Assembly: GCA_019454045.1 (NCBI GenBank)
Contig: SKCR01034824.1
Location: 1-64,000, forward strand
DNA length: 64,000 nucleotides
Reading direction: 5' to 3'
Source of the DNA: Zanthoxylum bungeanum
Taxonomy: Eukaryota; Streptophyta; Magnoliopsida; Sapindales; Rutaceae
This document shows, piece by piece, positions 28,401-46,601 of this stretch. A model generated the notes under the pieces. That model did not search any database, was not told where the DNA came from, and saw nothing but the letters and a program-made list of their open reading frames with translations. The first letter of the stretch is position 1. Each line of letters opens with the position of its first letter. Both the position numbers and the translations under genes were made by a program.

Positions 28401-28905
28401 AAGCATGATGAACGCTAAAAAGTGCACATTTATTAAAAGAAAAATTAATCATTTTACACTTGAAGTTTCAATAATCCCCTTAATTTAGCATATTTGTAAA
28501 CTAATAATTAAATTTATGCTTTATATATTTTTATTGTGATTTCTATTTCTTATGTAGGTGAAATAATACTTTGCATGCATAACTAGAAAAATTGACGTGA
28601 TATTTGGATTTTGGAGGCCAGAAATTTAAAAGAGCGTTCTAATATTGTACAATTTCGGAAATGTCAACTTTGTGCAATTTTTGTATTTTGGCCATAACTT
28701 TTTACTCTCATATCAGATTGAGGCGATTCCAGTTCCAGATAAAAGAATAATCAAATATTTACAACTTTTCTGTTGATAAGATTTTCTAGTTCGGGGATTT
28801 TCAAGACCGAAATTGATGAAAAATCCAAAGTGTGTTATATGTAATTATTAAAGCAAAAAAAATAAAAAATAAATAAATAAATTCGGAGGATTGGCCAATT
28901 AAGTT

Positions 28906-28991
28906 GAAAATTTTACATTGCATTATTAAATGCAATGCAAAATTTTCAAAGAAAGATGGTGTTGAGCCCTCTATAAATAGAGGAGCTCAAC
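28906..28991 (+). promoter_or_regulatory. two hairpins over the LTR promoter
   Basis: The first inverted repeat (28906-28947) pairs gaaaatttta-cattgcatt with aatgcaatg-caaaattttc. The second (28961-28991) pairs gttgag and cctctat with atagagg and ctcaac around the TATA box. Both are kept in the 3' LTR at 42468-42553. Confidence 0.7.
28971..28980 (+). promoter_or_regulatory. TATA box of LTR promoter
   Basis: The word ctataaatag is a canonical plant TATA box in the middle of the LTR. It is conserved in the 3' LTR at 42533-42542. Transcription would start about 30 bases downstream, near the ctcaacacc segment. Confidence 0.8.
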
Positions 28992-29700
28992 ACCTTATTT
29001 CTTCAGCATCCTTCATAGGTTTCTTTCTGAAATTTTGTGAATGATTTATGCTCTTGTGTATTTTATTTTTTATAAAAACTTTCTTGTAATTTCTTTTTTT
29101 AGAAATAAAATTATGTGTGTTTTTTATTCAAATTATGAGTAGCTAATTTCTTCTTGCTGGGGTAAATGGAGAAGCTTTTAATATGAAAATATAAATTAAT
29201 CTCACTTACATTATAATACATAAATTGTAATCTAATGATTAATATTTAATTTAAATTTGGATTAATTACTGTCAAACTTTGTTACCGCCTATATGGCTGG
29301 TTTAATTTATTTGACATAATTGATTACCTAACTGGACTTGTTATAGACAAATGTTATCACCGTCTTTATGGTTGGTTTTATATGGTTTGACATAATTAAT
29401 TCATGAATTAAATTAACTGGGTAATAATGACAATTTATATATTATAAAAAGTGAGATTTCTAAATTTGAAATATTAAAAGTGGATCCCCTAACACCAGTA
29501 TTTTATTTTATTGTTGCAGTTCAATTTAAAAATTTCCAATCCCTTTAAACAACTCAATCTTTTTATTTTCACTCAAATTATTATTTTATTTTACTAAATC
29601 TACTCCTTGTGGATCGACCCCAGACTTATCGGGTTATTTTATTACTTCGATAATCTTATACTTGGGAATAAAAAATCACTTTTTAAGCGTGTCAAGTTTT

Positions 29701-29718
29701 TGGTGCTGTTGCCGGTGA
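29701..29718 (+). other. primer-binding site of LOG-carrying element
   Basis: The word tggtgctgttgccggtga lies six bases after the LTR end. It is a slightly mutated form of the tggcgccgttgccgggga site used by Athila/Tat elements. Confidence 0.85.
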
Positions 29719-29949
29719 ATATAATTTAGTAGATAAAATAATAATTTAACATCCTTGTATTTATTATTTCATTTTATTTTATTTTTATTTTATTTTTATT
29801 TTTATTTTGTATTTCTTTTATTTGTATTTTATGTATCTCATTTTTTTAATCACTACTTTTGTATTTTTTGTCATTCATTTTAATTTTTTTCACTTGTTTA
29901 TTATTTTTCTTTATGTAAGTACTGCTTAAATTTTAGGATATAGTTTGTA

Positions 29950-31535
29950 GTTAGGTTACATGAGTTTAGGGATAAAAATCCTGAAGATACACTAGATTAC
30001 CTAGAACACATAGTAGAGAATGCTCAACAATGGGATATAGTTGGCACTTATGAGTCGCCTGTAAAACCACAGCCATCTAGTAAAGGTATGTTTAACATTA
30101 GGGAAGACCATGACCTTTCTGCTCAATGTGCATCTCTAGCTAAAAAATTGAGGCATTAGAAATGAGGAAGAGTGATCATGTCAAGTCAATTCAAGAAGTT
30201 GCATGTCAAATATGTAATTCAAATGAACATGTCATACAAGTTTGCCCAACCTTGCCAGCCCTACAAGAATGTCTCCACGACCAAGTCAGTTTCACAAACA
30301 CCTTCAAGAAACCAAACCCAAACCCATACTCCCAAACCTACAATTCTGGTTGGAGAAACCATCTGAACTTTAATTGGAGGAATGATAACAAAGCACAACC
30401 ATCGCAACAACCTCCCCATGTACACCAGAATTTTCACAACTCCCAGAATTATGCACCATATATCCCCCCGCCTAGGAAAACCCTTGAGGATGCCTTACAT
30501 GCATTCATTAAAAAATAGGAAGCCATCAATAATCAAAATATGAAAACATTGATTGATCTGAAAGATATTTTCTCCAAAATCACATCTACACTAGCCTTTA
30601 ATGAGAAATGGAAGTTTCCTGTACAACCACAACCAAACCCCAAGAGACATCAAAACCCTCACGAGGGTAGTTCAGATTGTCAACACATAAACCAAGTCAA
30701 ATCTGTTATTACTCTTCGCAGTGGTAAGGTCATCCACAGACCTATTCTTGAACCTCATGAAACTGAAAATAAATCAGATTATAGGGTAATGAAGGGTTTG
30801 ATGAACCATTACCTACCGTTGATGATAGCAATCTTTCTCATGCACCTTCATTTCCTCAAGCATTAAAAACAAAGAAATTAAACCATTCCCCATAGATTTA
30901 TGAAAAATTCAAACAGATAAAGATCAATATTCCTTTGTTAGATGTCATCCAAAAGATAGCATTTATTCCAAATTTCTGAAATACTTGTGCACCGTTAAAA
31001 GAAAATATCAGGTAAGAAAGAAATCTTTTCTAGCTGAATAGGTAAGTTTCATTCTCTCAACTAATAATGTATTAAAATACAAGGACCCTCGTTGTCCAAC
31101 TATTTCATGTATTATTGAAATCAAAAAATTGAACATGCATTGTTTGATCTTGGAGCCAATGTGAATTTTCTTCCATTTTTGGTTTACCAACAACTGAATA
31201 TTGGCGAGTTAAAACCAACATCAACTATTCTTTTACTTGTCGATAGATCAGTCAAGGCACCAAAAGGAATTGTTGAAGATGTGATATTACAAGTTGATAA
31301 ATTCATATATCTTATGGATTTTATTGTATTGGAAATATAACCTGTAACAGACAGTTATAAGCCAATTCCTGTAATACTTGGTCGCCCATTTTTAACAACT
31401 GTTAATGTTTTAATTAATTGTAGGAATGGAAACATGAATTTATCATTTGGCAATATAATGCTGGAGCTTAATATTTTAACATGTACAAACAACCATACAA
31501 TAAGAACCAATTGTGGAGGAATATATTCAGGTGAG
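29950..31535 (+). pseudogene. gag-protease of LOG-carrying element
   Basis: The gag C-terminal part shows a zinc knuckle in CQICNSNEHVIQVCP (about 30210-30255). It is followed by the proline/asparagine-rich TYNSGWRNHLNFNWRN and then VITLRSGK (about 30705-30730), a linker common before protease in Athila/Tat elements. The aspartic protease reads ALFDLGANVNFLP at about 31136-31175, in the DLGA form usual for this branch, and later VILGRPFLTT (about 31370). Stops at 30519 and frame changes separate the pieces, and the gag N-terminal capsid is mostly absent. A copia solo LTR interrupts it at 31536 and the reading continues at 33553. Confidence 0.88.
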
Positions 31536-33552
31536 TGTTGGTTTATTCTAAGGTCCCAAGATCAAATCAAGACATGAAAACATGCGTGAACACATCAACG
31601 GAGGTAGCGGAATACTCACATTGATCGGTTGAGTCGATTTGAAGACGAATGAAGCCAAAAACGCACTGCCCTTCACGCCAAACTGCTGGCAGTCCACTGC
31701 CCTGCAAACAGAAATTTGAGTGAAGAAAAAGAGCTCCTAGCTTCGTCGGATGGATCCCGTCTCATGGTCGAACCTCCCTACCACCTTCGCAAGACTTGAA
31801 AGTGTGCTAGCACTTGATTTTTCACCATGAAAATCACTCTTTGCTTCCCTAAAGTCCACGCCATTCTGGTTCCAAACCAGTCCAAGAATTTCTTCATTTG
31901 GCGTGAGAGAAGAGAGAGTTTTGAGAGAGATGAAATTGTGTTAAATTAAAAGATTTACCAAAAATCAATAATTTATGCCATAATGTTTATTAAATAAATA
32001 ATAAACTTATGACACAAAACATGCAATGGCTTAGAGTGTCAAACACTCAAACTCCATGCAAAACCATTGAGTGTATTGTACACAATCTTCATGCAATGCA
32101 TTAGATTAAATAATGCATAATATGACATGTGTCATGTGGGCCCCACAGTTTCCAAATGAAAGTGGGCCCACGTACACTCACGCTTTCGGGTTCGATATTT
32201 CCGAAATACCGAGCTTACGTCGCGACGTTAATTAAATCGAATAATTGCGGCTAGCGAAATTATTATTTACGTCGCTAACGAATTAATTCTAAATTAACTC
32301 GTTTGCCCGAATTAAAATCTAATTTTAATTCCGCGTCGAAATCTAATTTCGTTTAATATATCGAATATATTAATTTACCGATTAATTCCAAATTAATCGT
32401 TATCTCTCTCTAGACGATATTTTATCCTAGATAAAATATCTCCGTAATTAATCCTAGATAATTTTCTCTCTCTTCTATATAATCCCAGATTATTCAAGAG
32501 TGCAAGTTGTGCGTCATCGGTGGATTATCGGGAAGCGACCCATGAGATCCCCGGATAAGTTGGCAGTAAATACGGTCGTCGGAGTGCCCGAATCACGTAC
32601 GTACCAAGTACTACGTTCTACCGATTTACGAGACAAGGTCGACTCCTAGCAAAGCACCAAGTCTTCCCAAGTTCTCCGGACATATTCATCAAAGAATATC
32701 TAGATCTGTATCAAGCGTAGTATACAATTGTATTGTGCATATCGGCCCAGTATCGGATAGTCACGTGCTAGGGCTGGGGCTGGATAAGTGTCTGCCCCGT
32801 CCGAAACACATATCGGATGTCTGGTAACTAGTCTCTATAATCGGATATTCATGACCTGGTCATAATATCACGATTGGATGCGCATCACTGAAGAGCACTA
32901 ATACCGTATCCTGCGTGACATCATCTCCATTATGACTGGAGTGACACTTCCGTCTTGACATCACATCCAATACACTACGATTCTCTGATAAACCCAGAAG
33001 TGGTGTACACAGAACAGTTAAGATCCCCCACCACCAAAACCAAAGTTTACCGATTGTCGTAAGTATTAGCGATATAAGTCTCAGGTTAAGACTATACACA
33101 CCTACCTTGATTTCGGCCTCCCATAGACACCTAGTCATAATACCAATGGGATTCCGAAGGGTCTATCCAGAGCGAAGCTGTTTCCCCGTACCATCGGTGA
33201 AACACGACCTCCTATCGCACTTGCACAAGTATCCAATACTTATATATATGAGAACTATGCCGTTGTGCCCTCACAACGCGCACAAGTGCAATACTAGCCT
33301 ATTCCGCATTATCGATGTCCAGTCTCGATAATACTACGGCTAGGGATATTAATGATTAATCCTTCGTGGACTGATACTGTCTCATATCATCTCAATCCAG
33401 GAACTAATCATAGGGACCTCTCTTCATTTATATGTCTATGGTGATCTAATCACAAAATGAAGAGAGTGCAATTTCCTTGTTACATAGTTAATTTGCTACA
33501 ACAACACAATGATCTGTGCAAATAGTGACGCTATGGGTCATATTATCCAACA
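31536..33552 (-). mobile_element. Ty1/copia solo LTR, minus strand
   Basis: The plus-strand ends tgttggtttattct and gggtcatattatccaaca match the other copia LTRs in reverse. No copia coding sequence, polypurine tract or primer-binding site adjoins it, so it is a solo LTR left by LTR-LTR recombination. The flanks gtgag and tggag match at only three of five positions, so the target duplication is eroded or the edge is off by a base. Gag-pol of the host element continues on both sides. Confidence 0.85.
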
Positions 33553-33955
33553 TGGAGGTTATCTGATTCTAAGAAAATTTATACTGCTAATTTTCTTGAA
33601 TCAAGTACGTAATTAAATTCGGACACTCCTAATGTTTTTACTTGATTCTACACATGTACTGGAAAACGATGGAGAAAAATAGATTTTGGAGGAACTAGGA
33701 ACACTGGAAGAAGAAAACCATGAGGAAACATCCTATTTGGAATTAAAGACTTTGAAAAAAGGATTGAAGTATGCATTTCTTGGAGATGAACAAAATTATC
33801 TTGTGGAAATTTCTTCCTCTCTCACAAGTGATCAAGAAGGAAAAATACCTCTGGACTGGAGCCATCAAGGCATGGAAGAAACTCTCGTAAGACTCCACAA
33901 TCATTTCTTCTCTCCCCAAAAATGCTCTGATGAAAATTTACAAAGCACGCACTGA
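33553..33955 (+). pseudogene. pol linker between protease and RT, truncated
   Basis: The readable core LKYAFLGDEQNYLVEISSSL, then TSDQEGK, is the linker that in Athila/Tat polyproteins lies between protease and RT. In family members it leads into the ADIKGISP segment and RT. Here the resemblance stops after about 33870 and no RT motif (LCIDYR, FGLCNAP, FMDD) follows anywhere before the 3' LTR. This marks the point where pol was lost. Confidence 0.8.
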
Positions 33956-34711
33956 AAGAATGAGGCTTCTTATGATCCATGGTATTCGTAGTGATATTCG
34001 TTGGGTAATTGAAGCAAGGGTTCACTTGGCAGGTGAGTCGTCTGACTCTTTCATTTCTTACATGCTTGGTTTAGGGAAAATAATTAGGTGTTTGTTATAA
34101 ATGTGTATGCTGGACGTGCAACACTCGTTGTCGTTCTTTAGGAATGTTGTCTTACAATCGCGAAGATAAATTTCAATTCATTAGAGATGGCTTGAGTAAG
34201 AAGTCTTTAGATGATATATCATTAACTCTTGAGACACATCATAGTGGACATGTTCATCGAGTAATTCACAATTTGCATACATAATTTCAAAAAGAATGAC
34301 AATAATACAGTCTCGGGAATCTGACTTTAAAAGACCTTATTTTCCAATTTATAAGAAAAAAATATGGGAAGCATATCCCCAACCATAGAGGGCGTTCAAG
34401 CCGTTACTTGACGTAAAACCAGAGGAAGATGTGAGCCACAATCACAACTACCAGTATATATTTTTTAATTTATTGCTTTAATTTTCTTTACTTTAAATTA
34501 CTGTTTTGGTTTACTTTAATTTACTGTTTTGATTTCCTTTGATTTTATCGACATTATCTAAATTTTTTGACTTTCACGATCTATTTTACTGTTCATCTGA
34601 CAATTGTCATTTTGCAAGTACTAGTGCTTTTATTACTCACATTTTTCAAGATCCAAAAGTACAGCTCGCCATTTCTCTCTTCAACATATCTAGATAAGAG
34701 AGAGAGCAAAA
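33956..34711 (+). other. unassigned stretch between pol remnant and LOG-like gene
   Basis: Two short codon-like segments are visible: MRLLMIHGIRSDIRWVIEA (about 33971-34030) and FIRDGLSKKSLDDISLTLE (about 34178-34235). I do not recognise either. The last 250 bases are T-rich. It may be non-coding element sequence, or a further captured or 5' untranslated segment linked to the LOG-like copy. Confidence 0.4.
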
Positions 34712-35363
34712 ATGGAGAAAACATCAAGATGACGAGTCACTAATATTTGTGTGTTTTGTGAAACTAGCTCTAGAACTAAACCAGAATTGGTTGAAGCTGC
34801 AAAAGAATTGGGTAGAGTTATGGCAAAAAGAAATATGCACTTAGTATATGGTGGTGGCAATCTTGGATTGATGGGATATGTTTCAAATGTTGTGTAAGAA
34901 GGTGGCAGTCAAGTTTTAGGGATCATCCCAAAACCTTGGCATACGAAAACCTCATCTGAAAATCAAATGGAGAAGAATATATTGTCTTAGGTATGTCTGA
35001 AATACTTACTAAAATGATTAATCATGCTGACGCTTTTATTGCTTTACCAGGTGGGCTGGGCACGCTGGAAGAAATATTCACAGTGGCATCATGGGCAAAC
35101 TTGAACATTCACCGAATACCCATTGGACTACTTAATGTTGATCATTTTTTAATTTTCTTTTAGTATTTCTTGAGGATGCCAAAAGACTTGGGTTTATTTC
35201 GAAACTGGTAAAAGATATCGTCCTAACTACAAGAAAATCTTATGAATTAATTGACCATCTCTTAGTCTATGAACCAAAAATTGACCTCATTCTTTCCAAG
35301 ATCAACTGGTCTGATAACGATCGTGGCAAGAAGCGTAGAGTCGACTTGGATCTTAATCTATAA
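34712..35363 (+). pseudogene. LOG-like cytokinin riboside 5'-monophosphate phosphoribohydrolase
   Basis: LOG enzymes release active free-base cytokinins from their nucleoside monophosphates in the cytosol and nucleus. The copy covers the whole domain in about 217 codons, close to the usual 200-240. Visible blocks are ICVFCETSSRTKPELVEAA (family: CVFCGSS), [33 protein letters not shown] and [18 protein letters not shown] is the signature active-site motif; the conserved Arg just upstream in the family (M--RK) is replaced here. It is broken by stops near codons 7 and 62, a frameshift near 34975 and another near 35160. No introns are seen, whereas plant LOG genes normally have several, so it derives from a spliced transcript. 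The C-terminus ends DLDLNL. It sits inside a retrotransposon where RT-integrase should be. Confidence 0.88.
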
Positions 35364-35450
35364 TTTTTCTTTTAGATAGTCGTATATTCAATTGTCAATT
35401 TCACACTAACTAGGTGATGTCTTCTTAACTCTACTTATTCTTATTGAGAC

Positions 35451-35490
35451 ATTGGAGACAATGTCTCAATTTGGTTGGGGGAATGGATAG
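35451..35490 (+). other. conserved post-pol motif with internal purine tract
   Basis: The words acattggagacaatgtctca and ttggttgggggaatgg occur together. Athila/Tat elements carry a very similar acattgnggacaatgt-purine-run arrangement shortly after pol. Finding it 90 bases after the LOG-like stop shows that retroelement sequence continues on the far side of the gene copy. Confidence 0.65.
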
Positions 35491-35507
35491 TTGACTAGAT
35501 AGTTTTC

Positions 35508-37415
35508 TGTAACATCCTCAATCTGAGAGATGCTACTGGCATGGAATATGCCGTACTATCCCCATAAGGACCGAAACCCACTAGTGAGTGCCATCAGTAT
35601 CCATCCCCTCGAGCTCGTCCTCTGGAAATACCTGTAAAACAAAGAAACTAGAAGTGGGGGGAGTTAGATCGTTTAAACAATCTAAGTAAGTGGACAGTTT
35701 AAAAGTAGTACTAAAAGTGCTTTTGAAAATCCATGGTTCTAAAACCAATTTCATTTCAAATCATCTTATTATTTGAAAACAACTTTCTTACTGGAAAACT
35801 TTTTCTGAAATCTGCTTTTGAAAATCTGGTTCTGAAAACCTGTATCTGAAAGATTTGTTCTGAAAACTATTTCTGAAATATATGTTTCTAAACACTGTCT
35901 CTGAAAACTGTTTTTGAAAAACCTAATGCATGGGGGTGTTACGTATCACTGTCCCCCAATACGCCTAACTAGACCTAGGAGTGTAAATCCATGACATTGG
36001 GGCGTTACGTATCGCCGTCCCCCAAAGAATGTCACTACCTATCCCTAAACTAGTGGTTTTGGGGCATTACGTATCATTGTCCCCCAAGCCACTGAACTAG
36101 AACTGGGGGTGCAGATCTATGCTACCCTCCAAGCTCTGAATCTAGGATCTAGGGGCATCTGTCATCCCTAGTCCTGAACTAGGATCTAGGGGCTTTATGT
36201 ATTGCCGTCCTCCCAGTCCTTTATATGTGCATATATTCTCTTTGTCAATTCCATATCTGAATCAAGTTACATACTGAGGTGGGATTTTCCCCCATGCCTT
36301 GAAAACATGAAATCATACTTTGAAAACATTTTTTTTCTTAAACCATTTCTCAAAACATGTTAAACAAAATGCAACTGATAGTGAACTTGACTAACGCCCT
36401 AAATGCAAAAAGTAAGCCTGATTTGGAATAACATAATAAAAGTCAACTTAAAAGTAAAGTATCCACTCACTGATTTGGAGTCCCGCTAGCGTTACTTCAC
36501 TTAGCTGAAGAAATTTATGGTTCATGCGGTGGTCTATAATTGATAATCTCGATTAGAAGATAGCCTGATAAAAATTACAAGATTAGGCTAATTTACCTAT
36601 TCAAGTATTTTATTAACACTTCACTGCGTATTATGCGTATATCATGACATAATATATATATACGAACTATTACGAGACCCTTGGGGTGGCCTCTAACATG
36701 CTAGGGTGAATCTGGAATGAATTAAAAATATTTTGGGGAAATTATGGTCTTTGCGTCCCGAAGCAAGGCCTTGCGAGTTGCGACACTCTCAATTTCAGAA
36801 ACGAATGCCTGAAAATTTCTAGTGCGCGGCGCGACACGGACATTCCAGAAACGAATCTGCCTAAATTTTCCAGTACGCGTTGCGGCGCTAACCCCTTGGG
36901 CGTCGCGATGCGCACCTGTTTTTTAGGTTTTCCAACACTTGTTTCTACACATCTAGTTTATCCAAGAGTATTACCAACACTTCATCCGAAACCAATACAC
37001 AATCTATCTCATTAAACTTCAATTTCATATACTCTATACCAACATCTCATCATCAAACAACTTTTTAATCTAATCATTTTTGTTTTTTTAACCCAATACT
37101 TAGGGTTCCCAAATTTTGGATATTACATCATACCATATATTTCTTTATTTACTAACCACTTAAATGCATCCTCTAGCTTGCCAATTACTCTAACATGGCA
37201 TCAAACTCTTAAAATTTCACAATCCAAATTTTGGGTCAAGTTGGTCTTACCTCATTTCTTGTTATTTCCTTCATCTTCCAAGTTTTCCATGATTTCTACA
37301 CTCATTCTTTGCTTGATGTATTAGTATTATGCCTTTGTTTCTTGTTATTTCTTTCTTCTCATTCTCATTCTCCTTCTTCTTCTTCTTCCTCTCTCTTCTT
37401 ACGTTTTCTTTTTCA
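35508..37415 (+). repeat. left arm of inverted repeat
   Basis: It pairs in reverse with 37835-39690 and with 40607-40659. Relative to the right arm it lacks about 220 bases after ccgtactatccccataagg. It contains four ggggcgttacgtatcgccgtc units (35936-36210), ctgaaaa-rich simple repeats (35800-35930) and gcgtcgcgatgcgc near 36898. Confidence 0.85.
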
Positions 37416-37834
37416 CTTTTTGAGATTTGGTAATAGTACCCCTTATATATAATAAGGGGTTAAATGGCTAATTTGTGAAACTTTTAAAATAAAAAGTGTT
37501 GGAAAAATTGAGAGTATTGGAGAATTATCTAGATTCATCCTTAAGCACTATTCATACAAAATTTTGACCTGCTTTTTCAACCTATTTTGGAAAAATATTC
37601 AATGCATAAATTATAGGTCTTGATCTCAGCTTTCGACAATATAAAATTCATAAAAATCAGAGTTCATATGAGAAAGTTATGGCCTAAATACCGTGGGCTA
37701 TCCGGAGTGGAATATCGTATTATCTAGTATCAGAATCCCGAAGAATTTTCCGATCGTTCACAAAATCATTTGAATTTATATGTCTGAGCATAATTTATAT
37801 CATGTGACACTCGTCCTATAATGTAACAGTAGTC

Positions 37835-40659
37835 GAGAAAACGTAAGAAGAGAAAGGAAAAAGAAGAAGAGAGGAATAATAAGGAGAAGAAAGAAAGAAC
37901 AAGAACAAAGAAAAAATACTAATGCATCAAGCAAATAAGGAGTGTAGCAATCATGGAAAACTTGGAAGATGAAGGAAATAACAAGAAAGGAGGTAAGACC
38001 AACTTGACCCAAAACTTGGATTGTGAAATTTTAAGAGTTTGATGCCATGTTAGAATAATTGGCAAGATAGATGATGCATTTAAGTGGTTAGTAAACAAAG
38101 AAATATATGGTATGATGTAATATCCAAAATTTGGGAATCCTAAGTATTGGGTTAAAAAAACAAAAATGATTAGATTAAAAAGTTATTTGATGATGAGATT
38201 GTGGTATAGAGTATGTGAAATTGAAGTTTAATGAGATAGATTGTGTATTGGTTTTGGATGAAGTGTTGGTAATACTCTTGGATAAACTAGATGTGTAGAA
38301 GCAAGTGTTAGAAAACCGGAAAAATAGGTGTGCGTCATGATGCCTAAGAGCTTAGCGTACTGGAAAATTTAGGCAGATTCGTTACTGGAATGTCCACGTC
38401 GCGACCCGCACTGGAAATAATCAAGCATTCGTTTATGGAATTGAGAGCGTCGCGACGCGCAAGGCCTTGCATCGCGGCAAGGACCAAAATTTCCCCAAAA
38501 CAATTTTAATTCATTCCAGATTCACCCTAATATGTTAGAGGCCACCCCAAGGGTCTCGTAATAGTTCGTATATATACATTATGTCATGATATACACATGA
38601 TACGCAGTGAAGTGTTAACAAATACTTGAATAGATAAATTAGCCTAATCCCGTAATTTCTCTCAGTCCATCTTCTAATCGAGATTATCAATTATAGATCA
38701 TCGTAGGAACCACAAATTTATTCAGTGAAGTGAAGTAAGGCTAGCGGGACTACAAATTAGTAAGTGGACACTTTTCTTTTAAGTTGACTTTCATTATGTT
38801 ATTTTCATTTCAGACTTACTTTTTGCATTTAGGGCGTTAGCCAAGTTCACTATCAGTTACATTTTGTTTTGCATGTTTTGAGAAATGTTTTAAGAAAAGA
38901 AATGTTTTCAAAGCATGATTTCATGTTTTCGAGGCATGGGGGAAAAACCCACCTCAATATGTAACTTGATTCAGATATGAAATTGATGGAGAGAATATGT
39001 GCACATGTAGAGGACTGGGGGGATGGCGATACGTAAAGCCCCTAGATCCCAGTTCAGGACTATGGATGACAAATGCCCTTAGATCCTGGATTCAGAGCTT
39101 GGAGGGTAGCATAAATTCGCACTCCCAGTTCTAGTTCAGTGGCTTAGGGGACGGCGATACGTAATGCCCCAATACCACTAGTTCAGGGACGGGTAGTGGC
39201 ATGCTTTGGGGGCGGCGATACGTAATGCCCCAATGTCATGGATTTGCAATTTTGGCTCTAGTTAGGCTTATGGGGGGATGGCGATACGTATTGCCCCCAT
39301 ACTTCAGGTTTTTCAGAAATAGTTTTCAGTGACAGTTTTTAGAAACAGATATTTCAGAAATAATTTTAAGAACAGATCTTTTAGATACAGGTTTTCAGAA
39401 TCAGATTTTCAAAAGCAGATTTCAGAAAAGTTTTCAAGAAATAAATTAGTTTTCAAGTAATAGAAGAGATTTCAGGAAAGATAATTTGAAATGAAATTGG
39501 TTTTAGAACCATGAATTTTCAAAAGCACTTTTAGTACTACTTTTAAACTGTCCACTCACTTAGATCGTTTAAACAATCTAAGTCCCCCCACTCCCAGTTT
39601 CTTTATTTTGCAGGTATTTTCGGAGGACAAGCTCGAGGGGATGGATACTGATGACAATCACTAGTGGGTTTCGGTCCACCAGGCCAAGTCAGAAAAATAG
39701 TCCAGTCAAGTCAAGTATAGTCCAGTTTTAGATATTTTGTATAACAGAGTTGCGTTTGAGCATTCGTGTGTAGAGTTATATTATATATGATATTGTCTGT
39801 TCAGTCGTACATGTATTATTTTACGAACTTTGTAGTGAATTTGGGCAATGGTCCTTTATATAAAGATATATTGAGAAAAGTATCAGTATTGTTTAAAGTT
39901 AGAAAGTTAGAGGCTTAGGGGGATAATACGGCCTATTCCCTACCAGTAATTTTGAAAGGCATTATACGAAATTGGATTTAGACGCGGAATTAAAATTAGA
40001 TTTTAATTCGGGAGAACGAGTTAATTTAGAATTAATTCGTTAGCGACGTGAATAGTAATTTTGCTAGGCATAATTATTTAATTAAATTTGATTTAATTAT
40101 GTCGCAACAGAAAATTCGTTAATTCGGAATTAGCGAACCCGAGTCCGGGAGTGTTTGCGGGCCCACTCGCATTTCGAATCAAGTGGGGCCCACAAGTCAC
40201 ATCAAGCGTCAAATCACTAGTCAATCAAGTGATAGAAGTCACATCAATTTGAGTGAAGTGATGCTTGTCATTATTGATTGATGTGAATAGTGATGGTGGT
40301 GGTTGGATGGCATTAAATGCCATTTTGGCTCCAAATCTTGTTTGACTTTTGGAAAGGCTTTTACAAGTTTTTGGATAAGAATTTTGGTATTAGTTTTTTA
40401 GAAACCTAATTACACAAAACCAACACAACACACATTCTCTTCTTCTCTCCCTTCTATTCGGCCAAGGGCCAAAATGCTTCTCTCCCAATTTTCTTGGCAA
40501 GGCCGAGAATAACAAGAAGAAAGATGTAAGATTTGTGGCAAATCTTTCCAATGCTAGCACATGAAGAGTCATCCAAGGTGATAGGGAAACCTATTCATTA
40601 GCATGGGATAGTACGGCCTATTCCCTACTAGTAGCATCTCCCAGATTGGGGATGTTACA
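37835..40659 (-). repeat. right arm of inverted repeat
   Basis: Reverse copy of the left arm, from gaaaacgtaagaag at 37837 to gatgttaca at 40659. Four gcgatacgtaatgcccc units lie at 39009-39292 and gcgtcgcgacgcgcaagg at 38447. It is longer than the left arm and is interrupted by a copia LTR fragment at 39960-40606. Confidence 0.85.
39960..40606 (+). mobile_element. Ty1/copia LTR fragment
   Basis: It matches the copia solo LTR from about 45770 to 46370 (acgaaattggatttag to attcatgagcatgg) and lacks both LTR ends. The flanking host words gataatacggcctattccc (39922) and gatagtacggcctattccc (40607) are duplicated, so the piece sits between two copies of a roughly 27-base segment. Confidence 0.8.
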
Positions 40660-40764
40660 TTTTCGTTTTTATGTTTTATTGTTGTATTTTTCGAAAAAAA
40701 TGTTTTTGTTTTTTTATATTATGTAAAAAAAAAAAGTTTTTTTTTTGTTATTTTTCATTTGTTG

Positions 40765-40797
<33 letters not shown>

Positions 40798-41168
40798 GTG
40801 TGTTGATTTTCTTTTGTGCATTAAAAAAAAAACTACACACAAACCAACAACAAATTTTTGACTAACCGAGTGGAATTATTGTTCAGATATGGCTGTGTAT
40901 GGAGTTTTCGCTCTTGAGACGCATTTAAATATAATTCGTAACAAGTTATTTTTGTTCATTTCTTTTTGAATCATTTAATTTTTGAATTCTCCATAATATT
41001 GATTAAATTTGATCTTCATATGCTCTTTTGACAGGTATTATCAACATACACAGTAACATAGGATCATTGGTTATAAGTGGAAATTTTATAATATTCAGTT
41101 TTCTAGTTTTTTGGAGGTAGCACCTAAAGGAAGTGAAATTTGTGTTTTTATTTAAAAAAACTATTCAT

Positions 41169-41325
41169 GTTTTTACTTAGTAACCAGACATCTTGTCTCA
41201 GCAAGCAATGATTGTTCACGTAAAACGGTAGAGCTTGAGTTAGTTTAATAAAAAAATGATAAAGTTTTTACTTAGTAACTGAACATCTTGCCTCAGTAAG
41301 CAGTGATTGTTCGCGTAAAACGATA
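41169..41325 (+). repeat. duplicated ttacttagtaac module
   Basis: Two copies (41169-41229 and 41264-41325) read gtttttacttagtaac to gtaaaacgnta, 95 bases apart. They are the counterparts of 2561-2707 in the minus-strand Athila-like element. Confidence 0.8.
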
Positions 41326-41374
41326 GAGTTTGAGTTTGTAAAAAAAAATATGTGAATATGTTCAATTTCACAGT

Positions 41375-41630
41375 CTCTCTAACTCGAGTAACTAAGTTCG
41401 TATGGGTGTTTTAACACTTACTGCCATAAGAACAACTGGTATGGAAGTCACTGACTCAAAGCTTGTTACATTGGTTAAAGAGAAAGCTTAAGGAAATCAG
41501 ACACCTCTTCTTTTTAACATCTGAGATTCGAGCAGTTAAGTTTGTAGGGGTGTCTTAACATCTACTGCCATAAAGCCATCTGGTTTGTGAGTCACTGGCC
41601 CAAAGCTTGTTACACTGATTGAAAATGTAT
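41375..41630 (+). repeat. second duplicated module, ctgccataa-ctggt
   Basis: Two copies about 140 bases apart (41386-41480 and 41525-41620) share the order actgccataa, ctggt, gtcactg and caaagcttgttac. The function is unknown, and the modules lie between the previous repeat and the polypurine tract. Confidence 0.7.
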
Positions 41631-41925
41631 TATTATAAAAAAAAAAGACTATTTTTGTATTTACAAATAAATTCTCATTGCCAAAAAGTGTGAACTCTAA
41701 TGTAATTATTGGAAAAAAATATTACTTGTTTTTCAACAAGATATGTGAAAATTGTGGGCACAATAAATTGATTAATACCTTGTTTTTTGTGTGTATGGAA
41801 GAATGGTAAAAAGTAGAGGAGAATTTACCATTTGATTATTTAGAAAGAAAGAAAACAATTATTAATTTGGATAAGAATTTATCTTTTTAAAGTTTTTAGC
41901 TCAAATTACTAGGACTAGTAATAAG

Positions 41926-41938
41926 TTGGTTGGGGGTG
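41926..41938 (+). other. polypurine tract of the LOG-carrying element
   Basis: The sequence ttggttgggggtg immediately precedes the 3' LTR start tgttgaacac. Confidence 0.88.
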
Positions 41939-43255
41939 TGTTGAACACTAAAAATTGCATATTTAATAAAAGAAAAATTAATCATTTTACAATTGTAGTT
42001 TCATTAATCCCCTTAATTTAGCATATTTGTAAAATAATATTTAAATTTAAATTTTATATATTTTTACTGTGATTTTTATTTCTTATGTAAGTGAAATAAT
42101 ACTTTCGATGCATAACTAGAAAATAGACATGATATTTGGATTTTGGAGGCCAAAAACTTAAAATGGCGTTCTAACATTGTACAATTTCGGAAATGCGCAA
42201 TTTTTATATTTTGGCCATAACGTTTTACTCCGATATCGGATTGAGGCGATTACAGTTCCAGATAAAAGAAGAATCAAATATCTACAACTTTACTGTTGAT
42301 AAGATTTTCTAGTTCTGAAGTTTTCATGACCGAAATTAATGAAAAATCCAAAGTGTATTATATGTAATTATTAAAGTAAAAGAAAACAAAAAGAAAAAAA
42401 GAAAAAAAGAAAAAATAAATAAATAAATACGCCGAATCAACCTTTCGGTGGATTGGCCAATTAAGTTGAAAATTTTACATTGCATTATTAAATGCAATGC
42501 AAAATTTTCAAAGAAAGATGGTGCTGAGCCCTCTATAAATAGAGGAGCTCAACACCTTATTTCTTCAGCATCCTTCATAGGTTTCTTTCTGAAATTTTGT
42601 GAATGGTTTATGCTCTTGTGTATTTAATTTTTTTTAAAAAACTTTCTTGTAATTTCTTTTTTGAGTAATAAAATTATGTGTGTTTTTATTCAAATTATGA
42701 GTAGCTAATTTCTTCCTGCTTGGGTAAAGGGAGAAGTATTTAATATGAAAATATAGATTAATCTCACTTATATTATAATATATAAATTATAATCTAATGA
42801 TTAATATTTAATTTAAATTTAGATTAATTATTTACAAACTTTATTACCACCTATATGGCTAGTTTTATTTATTTGACATAATTGAGTACCTAACTAGACT
42901 TGTTATAGACAAATGTTATCACTGCCTTTATGGCTAGTTTTATATGTTTTGGCATAATTAATTCCTAAATTAAATTAACTGGTAATAATGACAATTTATA
43001 TATTATAAAAAGTGAGATTTCTAAATTTGAAATATTAAAAATGGATCCCCTAACCCCAGTATATTATTTTATTATTGCAGTCCAATTTAAAAATTATCAA
43101 TCACTTCAAACAACTTAATCTTTTTATTTTCACTCAAATTAATATTCTATTTTACGAAATCTATTCCATGTGGATCGATCCCGGACTTACCAGATTATTT
43201 TATTACTTCGACACTCTTATACTTGGGAGTAAAGAACCACTTTTTGAGCGTGTAA
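41939..43255 (+). mobile_element. 3' LTR of the LOG-carrying element
   Basis: 1317 bases against 1289 in the 5' LTR, roughly 90% alike by eye. It has the same TATA box (42533-42542), hairpins (42468-42553) and tandem modules. It ends gcgtgtaa where the 5' LTR has gcgtgtca, and is followed by aagct, matching aagca before the 5' LTR. Confidence 0.9.
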
Positions 43256-43583
43256 AAGCTAAATATCGTAAAATAATTTATTCCGATAAGAAAATTTCTG
43301 AATAAGTTCCTAGTTGAAATGTTTTTATTTTGATTATATGATTTATCTTGGATTAAGTATCCGTTTGGGAGTGTCTAAGGTTAAAATTATTTGAATTCTC
43401 TCGATAATATATCCAAAAGCCCTAGTTAAGTAGCAACTCCTAAAATGACCCTAACTTACATGTGCTATTTCAAAGTTTTTTTTTTTCCTTCCTTGTCTCG
43501 AGATATGTCTCATTTTGAATTACTTAAAATTTCTTTACATGTAATTGACCAAATTTTCTTCTTTCTTAATTTCTTAGATATCC
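43256..43583. other. flank and leader before chromovirus gag
   Basis: Apart from the target duplication (43256-43260) I see no gene here. It may be untranslated leader of the chromovirus whose gag starts at 43584. Confidence 0.4.
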
Positions 43584-44650
43584 ATGCCACCCAAGGGAAG
43601 AACCGGAGTTAGGGGTAGACCTAGGCGTGGTAGGGCGCCTCAAGGCATAAATTTGGATCAGAGATCAGCAGTAGCTCCCCCTGAGCCAAATAGGGGCAGT
43701 GAATGGAGTTTGTTCATGAGAGTGTTGTTGGGGAAGGTAGATCTGCGCCAGTGGATAAGTCCAATGACCCAGTAGTTGTGGGTTTACAGCAGATACAACA
43801 GTCAGTATCAGCTTTAGCCCAGTTGATTACCCGTCAGCCGCAGCCACCAGGCCCATAGCCAAGAGCTGCGGAACCCATCGTTCCTGTTCCACCACCATTA
43901 GTGGGAGTACCCATGGCTTACCAAACAGTACCTCCTCCAAATATACCAGACCCTATTACATACCGATCCAGACCTTCTGTTATGCCTCATGAGCCACCCC
44001 TAGTGACGGTTCAGGTCATGCAGCGGCAAAAGCTACTTATATCATTACATGACTTCCGGAAGCTTCATCCTCCCACTTTCTCAAGAGTAGAGACCTCCCC
44101 CGATCCTTGTGGCTTTATTGAGGAGTTGGATCAGATATGTACAGCTTTGAGATGTTCTTCGGAGAGAACGGTGGAATTAGTCAATTTTCATTTGAAAGAC
44201 GTCGCCAACACATGGTTTATGTCTTTTCGAGATGGTAGGTGACGAGATGCCCCTCCTATGACATTGGCTGAGTTCAGTACAACCTTTTTGTCTAGATTTT
44301 TGCCACAGAGTATCAGGGATGTCAGAGCCGTGAGTTTGAGCAGTTAGTACAGGGCGAGTAGATGACAATTTCAGAATATGACATACGGTTCACATGGTTA
44401 TCTCGCTATGCTCCACATCTGATTAGTACTGAGGAAATGAAGGTGAAGAGGTTTGTAAACGGGCTTCGAGATTACTTATTTCGCTCCATTCATTTTACGG
44501 AGACCACTACCTACACTCAGGTTTTAGATGCTGCTTTGCAGGTTTGATGCGCGGGTTAGAGAAAGACAATCAGAAAGGGAGTCTCGAAAGAGACCTAGGT
44601 CAGAGGAGAAGGTGAGGCCCCAGCAGAGTGGTCCAAGTAGACAGCAGCAT
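43584..44650 (+). pseudogene. chromovirus gag, plus strand, first part
   Basis: It starts MPPKGRTGVRGRPRRGRAPQ, the basic N-terminus also found in the minus-strand element at 24179. Downstream come LISLHDFRKLHPPTFSR, ADPxGFIEELDQICTALRC-like wording with DPCGFIEELDQI here, RTVELVNFHLKDVANTWF and TISEYDIRFTWLSRYAPHL, which together make the retrotrans_gag domain. Stops (for example near 43774 and 44242) and frame changes break it. A copia solo LTR is inserted at 44651 after agcat, and gag continues at 46607. Confidence 0.9.
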
Positions 44651-46601
44651 TGTTGGACAATTATGACCCATAGCATCACTATTTGTACAGATCATGGTGC
44701 TGTTGTACAAATTAACTATGTGACAAAGGAAATTGCCCTTTTATCATTTGTAATTGGATTACCTAGATATATAAATGATAGAAGGTCCATATGATTAGTT
44801 CCGGATTGAGATGATATGAGACAATATCAATCCACGAAGGTTTAATCATTAAATATCCCTAGTCAGAGTATTATCGAGATTGGACATCGATAATGCGTAA
44901 AAGACTAGTATTACACTTGTGCGCGTTATGGGAGCATAACATCATAGTTCTCATATATTTGGGTATAGGATACTCATGCAAGTGTAATAGGAGGTTGTGT
45001 TTACCGATGGTACGGAAACAGCTTCGCTCTAGATAGACCCCTCGGAATTCCATTGGTAGTATGACTATGTGTCTATGGAAGTCCGAATCAGGGTAGGTGT
45101 ATTTGGTCTTAACCTAAGACTTGCACCGCTAATACTTGCGACAATCAATATACTTTCGTTTTGGTCGTCCAGGACTTTAACAGGTTCTGTGTACGCCTCT
45201 TCTGGGTATTGAGAATCGTAGTGTATTGGGTGTCTTGTGCTCTTATGTACTGCAGTCATCGGGATAATATGACTAGGTCATGATTATCCGATTATAGAGA
45301 CTAGTTACTAGAGATCCGATATGTGCTTCGTACGGGGCAGACACAATTCCAGCCCCAGGCCTTGCATGTGACATCCGATGCTGGATTGTAATACGCAATA
45401 CTACGTATACTACGCCTGATATAGATCACATATTCCTTTAAGAATATTTCTGGATAATTGGGTAGGCACGGTGCTTTGCTAGAAGCCAACCATGTCTTGT
45501 AAATCGGTAAAAATGTAGTACTAGGTACGTACGTGTTCGGATAGTCCGACGACCGGATTTACTGCCAACATATCCGGGGATCTCATGGGTCGCTTCCCGA
45601 AGATTCACCGATGACGTATGACTCGCACTTAATTAATCTGGGATTAATTATAAGAGAGAAAATAATCTGGGATTAATTATGAAGATATTTTATCTGGGAT
45701 AAAATATTATTTAAAGAGAGAGAATGATTAATTTGGAATTAATCGATAAAATAATATATTCGATATATTAGACGAAATTGGATTTAGACGCGGAATTAAA
45801 ATTAGATTTTAATTCGGGCGAACGAGTTAATTTAGAATTAATTCGTTAGCGACGTGAATAGTAATTTTGCACGGAAAATTCGTTAATTCGGAATTAGCGA
45901 ACCCGAGCCCGAGAGTGTTTGCGGGCCCACTCGCATTTCGAATCAAGTGGGGCCCACAAGTCACATCAAGCGTCAAATCACTAGTCAATCAAGTGATATA
46001 AGTCACATCACTTTGAGTGAAGTGATGCTTGTCATTATTGATTGATGTGAATAGTGATGGTGGTGGTTGGATGGCATTAAATGCCATTTTGGCTCCAAAT
46101 CTTGTTTGACTTTTGGAAAGGCTTTTACAAGTTTTTGGATAAGAATTTTGGTATTAGTTTTTTAGAAATCTAATTACACAAAACCAACACAACACACATT
46201 CTTTTCTTCTCTCCCTTTTATTCGGCCAAGGGCCAAAATGCTTCTCTCCCAATTTTCTTGGCAAGGCCGAGAATAACAAGAAGAAAGATGGAAGATTTAT
46301 GGCAAATCTTTCCAATGCTAGCACATGAAGAGTCATCCAATGTGATAGGGAAACCTATTCATGAGCATGGAATCACAACACAAAGCTTGGAGCTTGGAGA
46401 TCCATCCATGGAGTTGACCGAAACTTGGAAAGCACAAAAGAATGCCATGGCCGAAAGTTTCAAGGAAGGTGCCAAGATTTTTTTGTGTTCGTCGCATCGC
46501 AAAGCCGATCGATGTAAGTATGATTCCGCCATACTTTATTTGAGTATTCACACATGTTTCATTGCTTGAATTGATCTTGGGACTAATCTAGAAACCCAAC
46601 A
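44651..46601 (+). mobile_element. Ty1/copia solo LTR with perfect target duplication
   Basis: The LTR runs from tgttggacaattatgaccca to tctagaaacccaaca. It is flanked by agcat on both sides (44646-44650 and 46602-46606), and the chromovirus gag reads on across it. No internal copia sequence adjoins it, so recombination between the two original LTRs removed the rest. Ttaatctgggattaatta units lie at 45630-45740. The open frame at 46258-46569 is inside the LTR and is not considered a gene. Confidence 0.95.

What the first reader, a model, noticed from the sequence alone, without database searches (positions are those of the whole stretch)
28401..43260. LTR retrotransposon that swapped RT-integrase for a captured LOG gene
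Seen: paired LTRs with near-identical target duplications, a primer-binding site, gag-protease, a pol linker that stops abruptly, a full-length intronless LOG-like sequence, an acattggagacaatgt motif plus purine tract, duplicated 3' modules, polypurine tract and 3' LTR. No RT, RNase H or integrase motif appears between the LTRs. Known: plant LTR elements can transduce host genes (maize Bs1 is the classic case), but I know of no described element carrying a cytokinin-activating enzyme. Inference: template switching onto a LOG mRNA produced a non-autonomous element able to spread a hormone-activating gene.
Basis: partly seen in the sequence, partly recalled or inferred. Interest (0 to 1): 0.88.

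Follow-up and report, generated by a model that had tools for sequence, protein, structure and literature searches.

The report
Plant retrotransposon family carrying hormone-activating gene
The stretch is a worn-out, shortened copy of a large family of plant jumping genes that carries a cytokinin-activating (LOG) gene in addition to its copying machinery; selection seems to have kept that gene working in the lineage that still moved, and next to it lies a second gene resembling a plant-virus silencing-suppressor protein.

Summary
The LTRs, target duplication, gag-protease, LOG and 3' LTR are real. The main interpretation is wrong: LOG did not replace RT-integrase. Relatives in this genome have RNase H, integrase and LOG together (L050, L081; RT by eye), in the order pol, extra ORF, LOG, purine motif, 3' LTR. 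The window copy lost RT-IN by a separate deletion. LOG has the same place in 30 of 30 fetched loci, window included. A protein search listed 150 near-full-length LOG copies, 47 without stops. Between two subfamilies LOG looks under purifying selection (net dN/dS 0.24; shifted frames 1.19, 1.57). LOG-less copies are best read as losses (not forced). Citrus gene models show the same arrangement; Acer and Xanthoceras models join gag-region text to LOG. LOG (YgdH) domains in gypsy elements of Citrus and Populus are already in print, so the capture is not new. Apparently new: position, selection and losses, a shared LxLxL-like tail (83 of 98), and an ORF between integrase and LOG related to the carlavirus cysteine-rich protein, for which I found no report.

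The parts
28401..28405 (.). left target-site duplication AAGCA (AAGCT in the homologous locus)
28406..29694 (+). 5' LTR (TG...CA)
29701..29717 (+). primer-binding-site-like stretch TGGTGCTGTTGCCGG...; tRNA-Asp/Athila type from recall
   Evidence: sequence; tRNA assignment recalled
29960..31535 (+). gag (CCHC-like knuckle about 30200) and protease region, broken
   Evidence: (zf-CCHC_2 0.012, below cut-off)
31536..33552 (-). later insertion 1, TG...CA LTR-like piece; empty site in homologous locus L016
33558..33843 (+). pol linker up to the RT-integrase deletion junction (about 33843-33866)
33869..34383 (+). [quoted passage not shown]
   Evidence: family call in relatives
34555..34711 (+). 5' leader of the LOG segment (left edge approximate, from LOG-less copies)
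34712..35363 (+). LOG (cytokinin riboside 5'-monophosphate phosphoribohydrolase) pseudogene, intronless, with stops and frame breaks
35449..35485 (+). conserved ACATTGGAGACAATGT motif and purine tract
   Evidence: flank piece found in 30 of 30 LOG loci, in some only in part
35508..40659 (.). later insertion 2, long inverted-repeat element with TGTAACAT ends and TTTTC on both sides
41140..41623 (+). duplicated 3' modules (41140/41235 and 41384/41528)
41928..41938 (+). polypurine tract next to the 3' LTR
41939..43255 (+). 3' LTR (ends AA instead of CA)
43256..43260 (.). right target-site duplication AAGCT

Best explanation
The window holds an old, dead, non-autonomous copy of an Athila-type Ty3/gypsy family whose fuller members read 5'LTR - gag - protease - RT - RNase H - integrase - cysteine-rich ORF - LOG - purine motif - 3'LTR (order put together from several copies and from Citrus gene models; no single copy was read end to end). 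Shown here: position and linkage of LOG, copies with and without RT-IN, constraint on LOG between two subfamilies, copies without LOG. Inferred: LOG entered once, long ago, downstream of integrase, and was inherited by elements of several plant genera; the window copy lost RT-IN later and then decayed; LOG-less copies are losses; the product is a working LOG enzyme made from the element's transcript that releases active cytokinin where the element is expressed. That would favour dividing or meristematic cells, from which new copies can be inherited, possibly together with silencing suppression by the neighbouring ORF. I put the architecture and history at about 0.9, an active LOG enzyme in the mobile lineage at about 0.6, and benefit to the element through cytokinin at about 0.35.
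For: LOG followed by the motif piece in 30 of 30 fetched loci (window included) and preceded by the same linker in 27 of 30. RNase H, integrase and LOG pieces in L050; RNase H, integrase, the ORF and an uninterrupted 217-residue LOG in L081. Own-genome protein search: 150 listed copies cover nearly all of P0001 at 87-98%, 47 without a stop (my count of the table). Net between-subfamily dN/dS 0.244 (bootstrap 0.135-0.426) against 1.19 and 1.57 in shifted frames. Citrus P0122 has RVT_1 + H2C2 + rve + LOG in one gene model; Citrus P0124 has the ORF start + LOG (by eye); Acer P0134 has gag (PF03732 E 4e-4, below cut-off) + LOG. LOG tree: 38 homologues on one side and two Arabidopsis plus one bacterial LOG on the other, support 94/90. 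Arg98 kept in 20 of 20 sampled copies, PGGxGTxxE in 13 of 20.
Against: No transcript, protein or enzyme evidence. Variants shared by 2-3 copies show no constraint (N/S 4.32, against 3.36 for singletons and 1.78 for those in 4 or more). Seven of 20 sampled copies lack PGGxGTxxE. A LOG-less subfamily also spread (40 of 40 scored), so LOG is not needed for spread in trans. The 20 younger copies were drawn from hits ranked by protein similarity, which leans towards conserved protein. Only three LOGs stand against the rest in the tree, the bacterial one on a long branch. The LOG-loss reading is not forced by well-supported branches.
Confidence: 0.8

Rival explanations
1. RT-integrase was replaced by LOG in one event: a non-autonomous transducer born by template switching.
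For: The window copy and some relatives join gag-protease to the ORF/LOG part without RT-IN (protease piece close upstream in 6 of 30 LOG loci).
Against: 9 of 30 LOG loci have integrase upstream, L050 and L081 have RNase H and integrase, and Citrus P0122 has RT and integrase. The RT-IN deletion lies upstream of the ORF, not at LOG.
Confidence: 0.03
2. LOG is inert hitch-hiking cargo, copied with the element without use.
For: LOG-less and broken-LOG copies are abundant; variants shared by 2-3 copies look neutral.
Against: Net dN/dS 0.24 with shifted-frame values above 1; 47 of 150 listed copies without stops; 83 of 98 full-length homologues keep an LxLxL-like tail.
Confidence: 0.12
3. Two or more separate captures of host LOG at a favoured site, so that the low dN/dS reflects host-gene evolution.
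For: LOGs of the other named plants are about 50-58% identical to P0001, not far above P0001's match to plant host LOG (alignment).
Against: Linker text shared by Citrus and the window genome (by eye); shared tail; L081 and window-type copies group together by the neighbouring ORF.
Confidence: 0.13
4. A LOG processed pseudogene inserted into this one element after it landed.
For: Intronless, with a 5' leader.
Against: 29 of 29 other fetched LOG loci have the motif flank, and 26 of 29 the linker.
Confidence: 0.01

Closest known systems
YgdH/LOG-domain gypsy elements of Citrus and Populus (PMC9289625: abstract, section 12 and passages seen; Steinbauerova et al. 2011, nothing read)
   Same: LOG-family domain inside gypsy-type LTR elements; Citrus protein P0122 has RT, integrase and LOG in one gene model.
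   Different: The section seen gives domain occurrence only. Here: a further genome with many copies, position, selection test, LOG-less copies, tail, and the neighbouring ORF.
Athila lineage (passages of PMC7264820 and PMC6317226 seen)
   Same: Gag, PBS and motif features recalled as Athila type; extra gene between pol and 3' LTR.
   Different: The extra genes are LOG and a carlavirus-CRP-like ORF. Membership by RT/RNase H/integrase tree not tested.
AlkB-bearing gypsy elements of Phalaenopsis (PMC9289625, abstract and section 12)
   Same: A host-type enzyme fixed in an LTR lineage and present in many consensuses; there shown active in vitro.
   Different: RNA demethylase, not hormone activation; reported only from Phalaenopsis there.
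Maize Bs1 (recalled; named in a PMC7264820 passage)
   Same: LTR element with transduced host sequence.
   Different: From recall, few copies and gene pieces; here a whole gene in a large family.
Carlavirus cysteine-rich protein / NABP (PF01623, PF05515)
   Same: 50 of 52 aligned proteins match PF01623 and 49 match PF05515 at E 0.01 or better; C86, C89, C94, C98 invariant or nearly so.
   Different: Partial match (31 residues of PF01623 in the L081 ORF); carried by an LTR element here; silencing suppression not tested.

Membership tests
LTR retrotransposon | Paired LTRs, 5-bp target duplication, PBS, PPT | tested here: met
   (duplication 4 of 5 bases in the window, restored by the homologous locus; PBS tRNA match recalled)
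Athila (Ty3/gypsy) | Domain order gag-PR-RT-RH-IN, extra ORF between pol and 3' LTR | tested here: inconclusive
   RNase H and IN before LOG in L050, L081; RT-IN-LOG in Citrus P0122. Absent in the window copy. Gag-PR and RT-IN were not read in one and the same copy.
Athila (Ty3/gypsy) | RT/RH/INT phylogeny within Athila | not tested
   no reference domain set was used; the label rests on recalled gag, PBS and motif features
Athila (Ty3/gypsy) | PBS complementary to tRNA-Asp | tested here: inconclusive
   sequence present, tRNA match recalled; no tRNA found in the window to compare
LOG (cytokinin riboside 5'-monophosphate phosphoribohydrolase) | Lysine_decarbox/LOG sequence family | tested here: met
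   PF03641 1.5e-36 for L081 LOG; 2a33 E 1e-58 for P0001
LOG (cytokinin riboside 5'-monophosphate phosphoribohydrolase) | Catalytic Arg98 and PGGxGTxxE with Glu121 (recalled as catalytic) | tested here: inconclusive
   20 of 20 keep Arg, 13 of 20 keep the motif; in the window copy the Arg position reads Ile, the motif is kept
LOG (cytokinin riboside 5'-monophosphate phosphoribohydrolase) | Enzyme activity | not testable with these tools
   needs protein
Carlavirus CRP/NABP (PF01623/PF05515) | Profile match above curated cut-off | tested here: met
   PF01623 24.9 bits, cut-off 20.9; PF05515 22.5 bits, cut-off 23.0, not reached by the L081 ORF
Carlavirus CRP/NABP (PF01623/PF05515) | RNA silencing suppression | not testable with these tools
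   needs an assay

The most novel reading that the evidence does not exclude
A lineage of plant LTR retrotransposons carries a two-gene host-steering cassette between integrase and the 3' LTR: a cysteine-rich protein of the carlavirus silencing-suppressor kind and a cytokinin-activating LOG whose conserved basic-LxLxL tail could take it to the nucleus and bind TOPLESS-type repressors. The element would both blunt silencing and push its host cell towards division. The retrotransposon ORF, whose relatives are conserved in several eudicots, may even be the source from which betaflexi-/alphaflexiviruses took their cysteine-rich protein.
Probability: 0.2. Interest if true: 0.92.

Novelty: new variant of a known kind. 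Interest (0 to 1): 0.65.

Why it matters
It turns a short mention of a domain in the literature into a testable system: a mobile element that seems to have carried a hormone-activating gene through several plant genera under selection. It makes two questions directly testable: whether retrotransposons change hormone state to reach the germline, and whether some plant-virus silencing suppressors and retrotransposon ORFs share an origin. It is also a practical warning: some annotated 'LOGL10' or LOG genes in plant genomes may be transposon genes.

Tried and rejected
Rejected: the LOG-for-RT swap (L050, L081, P0122); a late pseudogene insertion (29 of 29 other loci keep the motif flank). LOG-less copies as the ancestral empty site was my first reading; speaks against it (they group with three LOG-bearing rows, and 0 of 10 show integrase), but the tree has no outgroup, its well-supported branches force only one change, and the ten LOG-less rows come from one query and one subfamily. 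Rows dropped: 5 near-identical LOG copies of 30 before the dN/dS counts; 8 of 43 loci without a left-flank match of 250 bp before the tree; L050 and L031 in that tree are one locus. Led nowhere: viral-contig scan with P0001 (no relative); structure of the cysteine-rich ORF (mean pLDDT 61), too weak for a fold search, so none was run; PDB profile search for it (nothing credible); tRNA scan. A search for host LOG exons in the window's genome was sent 15 times and never answered, so the intron contrast with host LOG and the parent gene are untested. dN/dS on the cysteine-rich ORF is only suggestive: LOG-bearing copies to L081 0.44 (shifted frames 0.95, 0.77), LOG-less 0.47 (1.16, 0.55). Literature: ten searches listed PMC9289625 for YgdH and, among the titles and abstracts listed, nothing joining a carlavirus CRP to a retrotransposon; most subscription papers, including Steinbauerova 2011, are not held.
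Full report
What is there. The element runs from 28406 to 43255 with 5-bp near-identical duplications at both sides. The LTRs are 91.8% identical, K2P 0.087; with a recalled rate of 1.3e-8 per site per year that is roughly 3 million years. A homologous locus on contig C16958 shares flanks at about 97% and shows the left duplication as AAGCT, equal to the right one. The 15 kb length comes from two later insertions: about 31536-33552, absent from the homologous locus, and about 35508-40659, whose TGTAACAT ends and TTTTC at both sides are read. Without them the element is about 7.7 kb: LTR, gag-protease, pol linker, ORF remains, LOG, motif, duplicated 3' modules, PPT, LTR.

LOG is real and belongs to a family. 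Stop-free pieces match Pfam LOG families and plant LOG structures. A DNA search of the 3.96 Gb genome returned 40 scored copies, the window included, all 88% or more over full or nearly full length (8798 first-look candidates, which is not a copy count). In 30 of 30 fetched loci (the window, its homologous locus and 28 more, some near-identical) LOG is followed by the same motif piece, and in 27 of 30 it is preceded by the same linker.

RT-integrase was not exchanged for LOG. L050 has RNase H, integrase zinc-binding and integrase core pieces upstream of LOG. L081, 4.4 kb, has pol in three overlapping frames (an RT end, recognised by eye; RNase H plus integrase; the integrase end), a 183-residue ORF, and a 217-residue LOG without interruption, and matches L050 at 81.7% over 4442 bp. 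Of the 30 LOG loci, 9 show the integrase end within the short flank held, 6 show a protease piece close upstream instead (RT-IN deleted), and the rest cannot be judged by that test. Of ten LOG-less loci, 0 show integrase and 7 show the protease piece.

LOG-less copies. The LOG-less query returned 40 of 40 scored copies at 89% or more. In a tree of the flank left of LOG (35 of 43 loci; 25 rows with LOG, 10 without), the LOG-less rows sit with three LOG-bearing rows in one group (100/98), eleven of these in an inner group (95/95). With the RT-less state of these copies and LOG at the same place in Citrus, I read this as loss of LOG from an already RT-less subfamily. The tree is rooted at its midpoint only, and its well-supported branches do not force this.

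Selection. P0001, from the protein search, is 75% identical to the typed window LOG; it finds 150 listed copies at 87-98% in this genome, 47 without a stop (counted by me). Between 20 of these and 25 window-type copies, net dN is 0.064 and net dS 0.264, omega 0.244 (0.135-0.426); the same letters read in the other frames give 1.19 (0.71-2.36) and 1.57 (0.87-3.60). Within-group ratios are higher (0.43 and 0.69), as expected from decay after insertion. Allele classes are mixed: N/S 3.36 for singletons, 4.32 for variants in 2-3 copies, 1.78 for those in 4 or more; singletons against 4+ Fisher p 0.009.

Other plants. A padded search for longer proteins gave 17 hits. Citrus P0122 has RT, integrase zinc-binding, integrase core and LOG, with a linker like that of the window family. 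Citrus P0124 has the start of the 183-residue ORF fused to LOG. Acer P0134 has a weak gag match and LOG; Acer P0125 has gag-linker text and LOG. Xanthoceras P0012 and P0018 have gag-linker text between LOG parts. The linker, ORF-start and gag-text resemblances are by eye. Other hits (P0123, algae, bacteria) are not of this kind. In a 41-row tree 38 homologues are apart from two Arabidopsis LOGs and one bacterial LOG at 94/90; I labelled six of the 38 as element-borne, and whether the others (Populus and Diplodiscus among them) lie in elements was not seen here. Of 98 full-length proteins among the best 120, 83 end in an LxLxL-like tail (4.7 expected from shuffles) and 82 of these also have a basic pair or cluster before it (loose pattern). 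The last ten or so residues of the two Arabidopsis LOGs were not printed, so absence of the tail from host LOG is not shown. LxLxL as the EAR repressor motif is from recall.

The neighbouring ORF. The L081 ORF matches PF01623 (E 2e-5, above cut-off) and PF05515 (1e-4, just below cut-off). 383 database proteins match it, with names from Xanthoceras, Populus, Acer, Rhamnella and Orobanche among the best 120. Of 52 aligned members, 50 match PF01623 and 49 match PF05515 at E 0.01 or better. Cysteines 86, 89, 94 and 98 are invariant or nearly so. Viral CRPs are described as silencing suppressors, and that of chrysanthemum virus B as a transcription factor inducing hyperplasia (PMC12172455, passages). 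In the window this ORF is broken (33869-34383). Whether the other plant proteins lie in LTR elements was not checked, apart from this genome and the Citrus fusion.

Prior art. PMC9289625, section 12 (read), states that the YgdH domain was found in LTR-element consensuses of two Citrus species and, without its filter, P. trichocarpa, in line with Steinbauerova 2011. So LOG in gypsy elements is known. I found no report of the CRP-like ORF in LTR elements (listings), within a library that lacks most subscription papers.

Mechanism. The likeliest reading is that LOG is a working accessory gene of the autonomous lineage, expressed from the element, possibly through a spliced message (pyrimidine-rich AG sites precede LOG; inference). 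It would raise active cytokinin where the element is active. No transcript or activity data were available. The window copy itself is dead: broken LOG, Arg98 position changed, no RT-IN found.

Noticed in passing
window 33869-34383; [quoted passage not shown] 57-96% identity between the L081 ORF and the 51 database proteins aligned to it.
   Followed up: partly
L011, L014, L051-L060: LOG-less, apparently RT-less derivative subfamily with a truncated cysteine-rich ORF; also multicopy (40 of 40 scored at 89% or more).
   Followed up: partly
window 35508-40659: Long inverted-repeat (foldback-like) element with TGTAACAT ends, TTTTC on both sides and arms 86-93% complementary, itself holding a piece repeated at 45767-45998.
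   Followed up: no
window 43582-46500: What looks by eye like remains of another LTR element's gag frame, and a reverse-oriented relative of insertion 1 at about 44650-46400.
   Followed up: no
L002, L009, L010, L016 (contig C16958): Homologous locus (allele or duplicate) of the window with about 97% flanks, lacking insertion 1, with about 14 kb of other DNA shortly after the 5' LTR, and with the 3' LTR missing.
   Followed up: partly
C-terminus of P0001, P0039, P0080, P0122 and others: Shared basic cluster plus LxLxL-like tail; not seen in the printed parts of two Arabidopsis LOGs, whose last residues were not printed.
   Followed up: partly
L046, reverse strand 230-1396: 389-residue open frame, copia-like pol by eye, beside a LOG-bearing copy.
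   Followed up: no
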